Assembly: GCA_004366385.1 (NCBI GenBank)
Contig: SIRU01000064.1
Location: 1-64,000, forward strand
Source of the DNA: Actinomycetota bacterium
Lineage (GTDB): Bacteria; Actinomycetota; Thermoleophilia; Gaiellales; Gaiellaceae
DNA length: 64,000 nucleotides
Reading direction: 5' to 3'
Part shown: positions 36,183 through 40,999 of the stretch, in pieces
Layout of the letters: each line of letters begins with the position of its first letter
Numbering within the stretch: the first letter of the stretch is position 1
Translations under genes and position numbers: made by a program
Notes under the pieces: model-generated
Told to the model about the DNA's origin: nothing
The model's database searches: none
What the model saw: only the letters and a program-made list of their open reading frames with translations

Positions 36183-37394
<1,212 letters not shown>

Positions 37395-37440: not shown

Positions 37441-38736
37441 ATGAAGAAGCGATGGATGGCGTTCGCGCTGCTGGTCGGTGCGCTCGCCTTCGTCGCCGCC
37501 GGCTGCGGCGGGGACGACGGCGGCCCCGAGGGCAGCGAGGACATCACGGGCGAGATCTCGATCATGGCGATCTGGGGAGGCGCGGAGCAGGAGTCGTTCC
37601 AGGCCGTGATCGACGGCTTCACCGACCTGTACCCGAACGTGACGGTGAGTTACACGTCCGGCGGAGACAACCTGGCGCCGCTGCTGTCGAGCGCGGTCGA
37701 GGGCGGCAACCCGCCCGACATCGCGGCCGTCGGCCAGCCGGGCCTGATGCAGGGCTTCGCCGAGCAGGGGGCGATCCAGCCGATCGACGACCTGCGCGAC
37801 GAGATCGTCGACAGCTTCGGCGAGTCCGTCGCCGACGTGGGGGCCGTGGACGGCACCCAGTACGGCGTCATGTTCAAGGGAGCCAACAAGGCGACCATCT
37901 GGTACAACGTCGCGTCCTTCGAGGAGGCCGGCGTGGAGCCGCCCGAGACGTGGGAGGAGCTCCTCGAGGTGGCCTCGACGCTGAAGGCCGCCGGGATCAC
38001 GCCGTTCTCGGTGGGCGTGGACGTCGGGTGGCCGATCACCGATCTCTTCGAGAACGTCTACATCCGCACCGCGGGCGAGGAGATGTACGACCAGCTCACG
38101 AACCACGAGATCCCCTGGACCGACCAGTCCGTCAAGGACGCGCTCGCGCAGATGGCCGAGATCCTCGGGGACGAGTCGAACCTCGCGGGCGGCCGTGAGA
38201 CGTCCCTCCAGACGGAGATGCCCGCGTCGGTGGCAAAGGTGTTCTCCGAGCAGCCCGAGGCGGCGATGGTCATCATCGGCGACTTCGCGCCCGGTGTGGT
38301 CGCCGACAACCCGCTCGAGCCGGAGACGGGGTACAACGTCTTCCCGTTCCCGTCGATCGACGGCTCCGGGCCGGCGGTCGTGGGCGGCGGCGACATCTTC
38401 ATCCAGTTCCGCGACAGCCCGGCCGCGGACGCGTTCCTCGAGTACCTGACGACGGCCGAGGCGGCCGAGATCTGGGCTGCCCGCGGCGGGTTCTCGTCCC
38501 CGAACAAGGACCTCGACGACGGCGTCTACCCGGACGAGATCACGCGGGCGACTGCGAGCGGCCTCGCCGAGGCGGAGTCGTTCCGGTTCGACATGTCCGA
38601 CCTCCAGCCGTCCGCCTTCGGCGGGACGCCGGGAGCAGGTCTGTTCAAGGCGTTCACCGACTTCGTCGCGAACCCCGACGACATCGACGGGATCGCGCAG
38701 CAGATGGAGCAGGAGGCGGCGAGGGCCTTCGGCTAA
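37441..38736 (+). CDS. Sugar ABC transporter substrate-binding lipoprotein
   Basis: A 431-residue extracytoplasmic solute-binding protein of the CUT1/family-1 type. The lipoprotein signal is MKKRWMAFALLVGALAFVAAGCGG, with lipobox AAGC near residue 22, then an acidic linker. Binding-fold blocks include ISIMAIWGGAEQESFQAVIDGF, ATIWYNVASFEEAG, PPETWEELLEVASTLKAAGITPFSV and PNKDLDDGVYPDE. The substrate is unknown, probably an oligosaccharide or glycoside. It follows the ATPase by 46 nt with ribosome site GGGAAGGAG. Confidence 0.95.
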   Translation: MKKRWMAFALLVGALAFVAAGCGGDDGGPEGSEDITGEISIMAIWGGAEQESFQAVIDGFTDLYPNVTVSYTSGGDNLAPLLSSAVEGGNPPDIAAVGQPGLMQGFAEQGAIQPIDDLRDEIVDSFGESVADVGAVDGTQYGVMFKGANKATIWYNVASFEEAGVEPPETWEELLEVASTLKAAGITPFSVGVDVGWPITDLFENVYIRTAGEEMYDQLTNHEIPWTDQSVKDALAQMAEILGDESNLAGGRETSLQTEMPASVAKVFSEQPEAAMVIIGDFAPGVVADNPLEPETGYNVFPFPSIDGSGPAVVGGGDIFIQFRDSPAADAFLEYLTTAEAAEIWAARGGFSSPNKDLDDGVYPDEITRATASGLAEAESFRFDMSDLQPSAFGGTPGAGLFKAFTDFVANPDDIDGIAQQMEQEAARAFG

Positions 38737-38756: not shown

Positions 38757-40100
38757 ATGAGCGAATCGGTCTCGACGGCGGAAGCCCCGGGCGCGGGGCT
38801 TCCGCCGCAGGACGGCGGGCCCGGGGTCTTCCAGCGGCACTGGACGACCATCGTCTTCCTGGGCCCCGCGCTCGCGCTGCTGGCGGTCTGGATCGTCTAC
38901 CCGACGATCCGCACGATCATCCGCAGCTTCTACGACCGGAGCGGGGACGAGTTCGTCGGGCTCGACAACTACCAGACGCTCTTCAGCGACGACACGCTCG
39001 TCACGGCGATCAAGAACAACTTCCTCTGGCTGCTCGTCGTGCCGGCGATGGTCACCGCGATCGGTCTGGTCTTCGCCGTCCTCATCGAGCGGATCCGCTT
39101 CTCGGTCGCGTTCAAGGTGGCGGTCTTCATGCCCATGGCCATCTCGCTCTTCGCGGCGGGCGTGATCTGGCGGCTGATGTACGAGAAGGACCCGTCGCGG
39201 GGCACGATCAACGCGGGGATCGCGGTGGTCAAGGACGCCGTCTCGCCGCCGGGCGCGCTCCAGGCGGCGCAGCCGTCGACGGACGCCGTGGAGGTGGTGG
39301 CCGACGGCAGCCTCGTGCTCGAGACCCCGCTCGAGCCGGGAAGCGTCGCGCAGCTCGGGCTCACGGGCATCCGCGCATCCGACGTGCGCGACGACGCGGT
39401 GCAGGCGGTCGTGCCGGAGCCGCTCCAGGGCGGCATCACCGGCGTCGTCTGGAGAGACTTCAAGCCCGGCGGCGGCACCCCGGGCGTCCTCGAGGAGGAG
39501 GAGGTCGGGCTGCCGGGCGTCACGGTCGAGCTCCGCGACGTGAACGGGCGCGCGGCCTACACGGCGAAGACCAACCCGGACGGCACCTTCGGCTTCGAGG
39601 AGGTCGAGGCCGGGACCTACCGCGCCGCGATCGGTGCGGCGACGTTCGCGGTGCCCTACGCGGGCGTCTCGTGGCTCGGAGAGCGACTGATCACGCCGGC
39701 CATCATGATCGCCTACATCTGGGTCTGGGCCGGGTTCGCGATGGTCGTGATCGCGGCCGGCCTGGCGGCCATCCCGCGCGACCTGCTCGAGGCGGCCCGC
39801 ACCGACGGCGCCAACGAGTGGCAGGTGTTCCGGAGGATCACGATCCCGCTGCTCGCCCCCGTCCTCACGGTCGTCTTCATCACGATGCTGATCTACGTCC
39901 TCAAGGTGTTCGACATCGTGATCTCGATCGCGCCCGGCTCGGTGCAGGACGACGCGAACGTGATCGCGCTCGCGATGTGGCGGACCTCGTTCGGCGGCGT
40001 GAACGACTTCGGCCTCGGCTCGGCGATCGCCGTCTTCCTCTTCCTGCTCGTGATCCCGATCCTCGCCCTGAACATCCGCCGCTTCCGGAGGGAGGTCTGA
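38757..40100 (+). CDS. Sugar ABC permease with large extracytoplasmic insert
   Basis: A 447-residue MalF/UgpA-type permease. TM1 is FLGPALALLAVWIVYP (about 34-50); the EAA motif is LEAARTDGANEWQVFRRITIPLL (about 345-366). Family members are ~300 residues; here about 145 extra residues (roughly 155-300) lie between two membrane segments. Residues 226-293 of the insert (GITGVVWRDFKPGG..., VTVELRDVNGRAAYTAKTNPDGTFGFEEVEAGTYRAAIG) resemble a Cna-B/SdrD-type prealbumin-like fold. It is reminiscent of the MalF P2 loop that touches the binding protein. It overlaps the next permease as TGATG. Confidence 0.93.
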   Translation: MSESVSTAEAPGAGLPPQDGGPGVFQRHWTTIVFLGPALALLAVWIVYPTIRTIIRSFYDRSGDEFVGLDNYQTLFSDDTLVTAIKNNFLWLLVVPAMVTAIGLVFAVLIERIRFSVAFKVAVFMPMAISLFAAGVIWRLMYEKDPSRGTINAGIAVVKDAVSPPGALQAAQPSTDAVEVVADGSLVLETPLEPGSVAQLGLTGIRASDVRDDAVQAVVPEPLQGGITGVVWRDFKPGGGTPGVLEEEEVGLPGVTVELRDVNGRAAYTAKTNPDGTFGFEEVEAGTYRAAIGAATFAVPYAGVSWLGERLITPAIMIAYIWVWAGFAMVVIAAGLAAIPRDLLEAARTDGANEWQVFRRITIPLLAPVLTVVFITMLIYVLKVFDIVISIAPGSVQDDANVIALAMWRTSFGGVNDFGLGSAIAVFLFLLVIPILALNIRRFRREV

Positions 40101-40999
40101 TGTCGACGGCCGAGGCCACCGACGCCCGCGTCGAGACCCGCGCTGCCGTCGGCGAGCCGCTGTCCGCGCGGATCGTCCGCTTCCTGAGCCGGACGCCGGT
40201 GTACCTCTTCCTCGCGTTCGTGGGGCTGCTCTGGCTCGTGCCCACGCTCGGCCTGCTCTTCACGTCGCTGCTCCCGGCCTCGATCCTGAACACCACCGGG
40301 TGGTGGGAGATCCTGTCGGAGCCGAGCCTCGCGACCTTCGACAACTACCGCTCGATCTTCGACAACCAGGCGATCACGTCGGCGGTCTGGACGACGCTCT
40401 GGATCTCGCTCGGCGCGACCATCCTCCCGATCCTCGTCGCCTCGCTCGCCGCGTACGCGTTCGCGTGGATCGAGTTCCCCGGCCGCGACTGGCTGTTCCT
40501 CGTCGTGGTCGGCCTCCTCGTCGTCCCGATCCAGATGGCACTGATCCCGATCTTCTCGCTCTACAACAGCCTCGGGCTCTTCGACACGATCGCCGGGCTC
40601 GTCCTCTTCCACACCGCGTTCGGGCTGCCGTTCGCGATCTTCCTCCTGCGGAACTTCTTCATCGGGATCCCGAAGGACCTGCTCGAGGCCGCGCGGATCG
40701 ACGGCGCGTCGGAGCTCCGCATCTTCTTCCGGCTGATCCTCCCGCTCGGGCTGCCGGCGATCGCGTCGCTCGCGATCTTCCAGTTCCTGTGGGTCTGGAA
40801 CGACCTGCTCGTAGCGCTCACCTTCGGGCGCGAGACGCAGCCGATCACGGTCGCGATCTTCTCCCAGATGCGGCAGTTCAGCGCCAACATCGAGCTGATC
40901 GCGCCCGCCGCGTTCGTCTCGCTCGCGATCCCGCTGGTCGTCTTCTTCGCGTTCCAGCGCTACTTCGTGCAGGGCCTGCTCGCCGGCTCGGTCAAGTAG
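40100..40999 (+). CDS. Sugar ABC transporter permease (MalG/UgpE type)
   Basis: A 299-residue second permease of the importer. The N-terminal helix is VYLFLAFVGLLWLVPTLGLLFTSL, then VWTTLWISLGATILPILVASLAAYAFAW, and the EAA loop is LLEAARIDGASELRIFFRLILPLGLPAI. The end GLLAGSVK is typical of the family. Its ATG overlaps the stop of the first permease and has ribosome site GGAGGGAGG. With the ATPase, lipoprotein and first permease it completes the complex. A palindrome follows the stop. Confidence 0.95.
   Translation: MSTAEATDARVETRAAVGEPLSARIVRFLSRTPVYLFLAFVGLLWLVPTLGLLFTSLLPASILNTTGWWEILSEPSLATFDNYRSIFDNQAITSAVWTTLWISLGATILPILVASLAAYAFAWIEFPGRDWLFLVVVGLLVVPIQMALIPIFSLYNSLGLFDTIAGLVLFHTAFGLPFAIFLLRNFFIGIPKDLLEAARIDGASELRIFFRLILPLGLPAIASLAIFQFLWVWNDLLVALTFGRETQPITVAIFSQMRQFSANIELIAPAAFVSLAIPLVVFFAFQRYFVQGLLAGSVK

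What the first reader, a model, noticed from the sequence alone, without database searches (positions are those of the whole stretch)
38757..40100. ABC permease with a Cna-B/SdrD-like extracytoplasmic insert
About 145 extra residues lie between membrane segments; residues 226-293 resemble a prealbumin-like domain (VTVELRDVNG, NPDGTFGFEEVEAGTYRAAIG). E. coli MalF has an unrelated large P2 loop that grips the binding protein. This could be an independent solution, or a cell-wall contact.
Basis: partly seen in the sequence, partly recalled or inferred. Interest (0 to 1): 0.6.

Follow-up and report, generated by a model that had tools for sequence, protein, structure and literature searches.

The report
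Sugar importer permease with adhesin-like domain
One of the two membrane subunits of a sugar importer in this actinobacterium carries, on the outside of the membrane, a small folded domain of the kind found in bacterial surface adhesins; the same arrangement is kept at nearly constant size across many actinobacteria, so it is a stable, apparently undescribed variant of a common transporter rather than a freak of one genome.

Summary
Window 38757-40100 encodes a 447-residue CUT1-type ABC permease. About 140 extra residues (about 163-300) sit between core membrane helices 3 and 4, one helix before the cytoplasmic EAA loop, so the insert is extracytoplasmic. Pfam SdrD_B matches above its cut-off. 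AlphaFold2 on the insert alone gives a confident beta-sandwich (pLDDT 89, pTM 0.85), and residues 224-299 superpose on SdrD and UafA B domains. The permease belongs to an operon (binding lipoprotein, permease 1, permease 2, ATPase upstream) whose closest insert-free relatives are the AglEFG alpha-glucoside importers. Sixty-four actinobacterial members keep the loop at 151-159 residues. Insert carriers form one clade in trees of permease 1, permease 2 and the binding protein: one origin, inherited with the operon, no loss found. MalF's P2 domain lies in a different loop, so this is an independent acquisition. Alphaproteobacterial AglG carries yet another extra domain, in the first loop of the other subunit. 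Most likely the domain is a rigid docking or guiding surface for the binding protein (inferred, about 50%). Cell-wall attachment is less likely. No partner contact was shown. New variant of a known kind.

The parts
38757..40100 (+). permease 1 (AglF-like CUT1 permease, 447 aa) with the extracytoplasmic insert
39099..39185 (+). core membrane helix 3 (residues about 115-143), just before the insert
   Evidence: hydropathy, model helix 115-143
39243..39428 (+). N-terminal part of the insert (residues 163-224): short strands predicted together with the SdrD-B core; matched only in this permease family
39429..39653 (+). SdrD-B-like (prealbumin-like) core of the insert (residues 225-299)
   Evidence: Pfam SdrD_B 230-292; structural match to SdrD/UafA B domains 224-299
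39456..39503 (+). D234-F-x-P-G-G-G ... E246-x-x-E249 motif at the place of the SdrD-B calcium loop; D234, G238 and E249 invariant in 55 non-redundant members
39693..39767 (+). core membrane helix 4 (residues about 313-337)
   Evidence: hydropathy, alignment to MalF
39789..39848 (+). EAA loop (EAARTDGANEWQVFRRITIP), the cytoplasmic contact with the ATPase
   Evidence: sequence; E345 aligned to MalF E401
37441..38736 (+). substrate-binding lipoprotein (SBP_bac_1), lipobox VAAGC, AglE-like
40100..40999 (+). permease 2 (AglG-like, 299 aa), without the extra domain of alphaproteobacterial AglG
36183..37394 (+). ATPase of the MalK/UgpC type (ABC_tran, OB_MalK, TOBE_2)

Best explanation
This is the first permease subunit of an AglEFG-type (CUT1) sugar importer. 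In one actinobacterial lineage its third-to-fourth helix loop was enlarged once by a folded domain with an SdrD-B/prealbumin-like core. Shown: position, side of the membrane, fold prediction, single origin, near-fixed length, inheritance with the operon. Inferred: the domain stands at the outer mouth of the membrane pore, next to where the lipid-anchored binding protein docks. It would act as a rigid guide or clamp that holds the binding protein over the pore and helps couple its opening to the transport cycle, i.e. the job of MalF P2 done by another fold in another loop.
For: EAA motif one helix after the insert fixes it outside. Insert predicted with confidence, alone (pLDDT 89, pTM 0.85) and in the whole protein (mostly 80-93). 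SdrD/UafA B domains match by sequence and fold. Loop length 151-159 in 64 members. Insert carriers are one clade in the trees of permease 1 (SH-aLRT 100), permease 2 (100) and binding protein (97). The cognate binding protein gene lies directly upstream in nearly every locus long enough to show it. P2 of MalF, which contacts MalE, is the precedent (PMC3150292).
Against: No contact was shown. The membrane part of the model is poor (pTM 0.40), so the domain's placement over the pore is inferred. The insert varies more (42% mean pairwise identity) than the membrane core (65%) or the binding protein (53%). Partial correlation of insert and binding-protein distances is weak (0.18) and no better than that with permease 2 (0.25). 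Insert-free relatives exist with the same operon, so transport in general does not need it.
Confidence: 0.5

Rival explanations
1. The domain is a passive structural brace that stabilises or shields the membrane part (folding, proteolysis resistance, subunit pairing), with no dedicated partner.
For: Higher variability than the core, near-constant length, insert-free relatives with the same operon. Another clade fills the same loop with hydrophobic segments instead, so the site seems to tolerate additions.
Against: Invariant residues in what the model shows as a loop (D234, G238, E249) suggest a specific task.
Confidence: 0.25
2. The domain contacts the cell wall or another surface polymer, anchoring the importer in the peptidoglycan layer, in the way adhesin B domains act as stalks.
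For: The fold family is typical of adhesins and surface stalks. Most actinobacteria have a thick wall (general knowledge).
Against: Single copy with almost no length variation, whereas stalk modules usually repeat and vary; B domains are spacers rather than ligand binders (general knowledge); strict co-inheritance with the transporter operon.
Confidence: 0.12
3. The domain is an extra carbohydrate-binding site that concentrates oligosaccharides near the importer.
For: Beta-sandwich fold shared with many carbohydrate-binding modules; two carbohydrate-binding-module structures appear among the weak matches.
Against: Those matches are weak (Z under 4). No exposed aromatic platform is conserved; the conserved W232 lies in the first core strand.
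Confidence: 0.08

Closest known systems
AglF of the AglEFG(A)K alpha-glucoside importer (Sinorhizobium, Ruegeria)
   Same: Same operon order; about 45% identity in the membrane parts; related binding protein (30-32%) and second permease (49-52%).
   Different: AglF has 325-335 aa and no insert; instead AglG carries about 100 extra residues in its first outer loop.
E. coli MalF with its P2 domain
   Same: A large folded outer domain on the first CUT1 permease; possibly the same job.
   Different: P2 (residues 91-271, PMC3150292) lies in the loop between core helices 1 and 2; the window's insert lies in the loop matching MalF residues 355-360.
SdrD / UafA B domains (Pfam SdrD_B, prealbumin-like)
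   Same: Sequence match over Pfam's cut-off; superposition of residues 224-299 at rmsd 1.7-2.6 and 25-30% identity.
   Different: Single copy, embedded in a membrane protein, with an extra N-terminal part; calcium loop reshaped to DFxPGGG.
Actinobacterial AglF with extra hydrophobic segments in the same loop (L115-L124)
   Same: Same subunit, and enlargement of the same helix 3-4 loop.
   Different: The addition is hydrophobic (probable extra membrane helices), not a beta domain.

Membership tests
CUT1 (MalF/G-type) ABC importer permease | BPD_transp_1 domain with an EAA-x3-G loop | tested here: met
   Pfam PF00528 E 2.7e-19; EAARTDG at 345-351 aligned to MalF E401
CUT1 (MalF/G-type) ABC importer permease | operon with binding protein, second permease and MalK-type ATPase | tested here: met
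AglF (alpha-glucoside permease) | closest insert-free relatives and operon order as in aglEFG | tested here: met
   the insert-bearing clade stands beside, not inside, the sampled insert-free AglF
AglF (alpha-glucoside permease) | transport of alpha-glucosides | not testable with these tools
   GH13 genes lie nearby in some relatives (L037, L039, L047) but none was seen next to the operon in the window
SdrD_B domain | Pfam PF17210 above the curated cut-off | tested here: met
   34.1 bits against 29.7; a Streptomyces and the Trueperella member fall just below at 28.4-28.6
SdrD_B domain | prealbumin-like beta-sandwich | tested here: met
   (Z about 5-6, so fold and sequence must be read together)
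SdrD_B domain | calcium-binding acidic loop | tested here: inconclusive
   D234, E246 and E249 kept; the acidic positions expected between them read K/P/G
CnaB domain | lysine-Asn/Asp isopeptide bond | tested here: not met
   No conserved lysine: only 2 Lys in the window's insert, and position 236 varies K/R/T/S
MalF P2 domain | location in the loop between core helices 1 and 2 | tested here: not met
MalF P2 domain | binds the cognate binding protein | not testable with these tools
   no complex modelling available

The most novel reading that the evidence does not exclude
Sugar importers of the Agl branch have repeatedly and independently fitted outer domains of different folds, on different loops and even different subunits, to manage the binding protein. 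The actinobacterial SdrD-B insert would then be a third, previously undescribed solution beside MalF P2 and the alphaproteobacterial AglG domain, recruited from the adhesin-stalk repertoire.
Probability: 0.35. Interest if true: 0.6.

Novelty: new variant of a known kind. Interest (0 to 1): 0.42.

Why it matters
How a binding protein is kept over its importer is known in detail mainly for the maltose system of E. coli, with its special P2 domain. A widespread actinobacterial family with a different domain in a different loop, together with insert-free sister systems, offers natural comparisons to test whether such domains tune affinity, coupling or specificity. It also shows an adhesin-type module built into a transport machine.

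Tried and rejected
A common origin of the AglF insert and the AglG extra domain: profile comparison gave probability 4.5%, so not supported. Co-evolution of insert and binding protein by distance correlation: weak, uninformative. Copy-number variation of the domain: the longer (about 2 kb) matches were tblastn running on into the second permease; the proteins are all about 434-461 aa. MalF P2 homology: rejected by position. RNA element in the region: no Rfam match. Literature: no paper describing such a permease was found in the open library (absence in that library only). The Foldseek search alone gave no hit below E 0.001, so the fold assignment rests on sequence plus VIA-align.

Full report
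What is there. The ORF at 38757-40100 (447 aa) is a binding-protein-dependent permease (Pfam BPD_transp_1, E 2.7e-19) with an SdrD_B match at residues 230-292 above Pfam's cut-off (E 3.4e-8) and weaker CarboxypepD_reg and SpaA matches over the same stretch. It is the only SdrD_B match found in this genome. The gene sits between a binding lipoprotein (37441-38736; SBP_bac_1, lipobox VAAGC) and a second permease (40100-40999), with a MalK/UgpC-type ATPase gene upstream (36183-37394).

Side of the membrane and position. Hydropathy and the model place core helices at about 28-50, 85-110, 115-143, 313-337, 361-390 and 418-440. The EAA motif (E345-A-A-x3-G351), which touches the ATPase in such permeases (established knowledge), follows helix 4 directly. 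The insert, which precedes helix 4, is therefore extracytoplasmic. In an alignment with E. coli MalF and insert-free relatives, the insert falls between MalF residues 355 and 360, whereas MalF P2 falls between window residues 62 and 79. The two extra domains are in different loops. P2 is given as residues 91-271 in PMC3150292.

Is it folded? AlphaFold2 with 35 sequences gave pLDDT mostly 80-93 for 170-299 but a poor membrane part (pTM 0.40). The insert alone gave pLDDT 89.3 and pTM 0.85. VIA-align finds SdrD (10ps, 4jdz) and UafA (3irp, 3is0, 3is1) B domains over residues 224-299 at Z about 5.5, rmsd 1.7-2.6 and 25-30% identity. A macroglobulin domain (4zjg) scores as high, so the Z alone would not be decisive. 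The sequence profile independently finds SdrD first among solved structures, and UafA. Foldseek alone had no match under E 0.001.

Distribution and history. 35 loci with the insert were found in genome contigs, mostly Thermoleophilia/Solirubrobacterales, plus Phytohabitans and Trueperella. Streptomyces and Nonomuraea carry it too. In a draw of 396 genomes of the phylum, 24 have it; 17 of 199 in the class; 19 of 61 in the family, where 8 further genomes have only insert-free homologues. A search with the insert profile finds matches over most of its length (E 3e-21 or better) that sit, as far as their reading frames show, in this permease type; everything weaker (E 3.5e-13 and up) matches mainly the SdrD-B core, mostly in long proteins. 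In 64 members the loop from N152 to W306 is 151-159 residues long. Insert-free AglF homologues are common in the same phylum. A tree of the shared membrane core puts all 40 sampled insert carriers on one side of a branch (SH-aLRT 100), with no insert-free row inside. The same holds for permease 2 (100) and the binding protein (97). These are quick trees without bootstrap. The simplest reading is one gain followed by inheritance with the whole operon.

A comparison that puts it in context. The nearest insert-free systems include the alphaproteobacterial alpha-glucoside importers (AglE-AglF-AglG-glucosidase-AglK). There AglF is usually short, but six of seven AglG examined carry about 100 extra residues in the first outer loop; actinobacterial permease 2 has none. 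Profile comparison gives no support for a common origin of the two additions. Other actinobacteria fill the AglF helix 3-4 loop with hydrophobic segments (L115-L124). The Agl branch thus appears to have received at least three different additions.

How it most likely works. The domain sits on the face where binding proteins dock. It has a near-fixed size and a handful of invariant loop residues (D234, G238, E249), and is inherited with its binding protein. By analogy with MalF P2, a docking or guiding role for the binding protein is the best guess (about 50%), but nothing here shows contact. Distance correlations did not favour the binding protein as partner. A structural brace (25%) is the main rival. 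Wall attachment (12%) suits the adhesin kinship but not the single copy of near-fixed length.

Limits. The substrate is inferred from kinship only. The calcium site is only partly conserved. Domain placement over the pore could not be modelled. Genome searches took a loose first look and scored a limited number of candidates per genome, so counts are lower bounds. Literature coverage is limited to the open library.

Noticed in passing
L115-L124: AglF homologues from other actinobacteria have additional hydrophobic segments (probable extra membrane helices) in the same helix 3-4 loop, and several also between helices 1 and 2.
   Followed up: partly
L048:5857-7005, L050, L130, L131, L132, L134: Alphaproteobacterial AglG carries about 100 extra, probably beta-rich residues in its first periplasmic loop; in the copy scanned (L048) they have no Pfam match. 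The Neorhizobium copy (L133) lacks them.
   Followed up: partly
L026: A contig labelled Bifidobacterium breve (MAG) encodes the operon at the similarity expected of Solirubrobacterales; the organism label is probably wrong.
   Followed up: no
L132:3348-4586: The annotated AglF of Rhodobacteraceae bacterium S2214 is 412 aa, longer than the usual 325-335; the reason was not examined.
   Followed up: no
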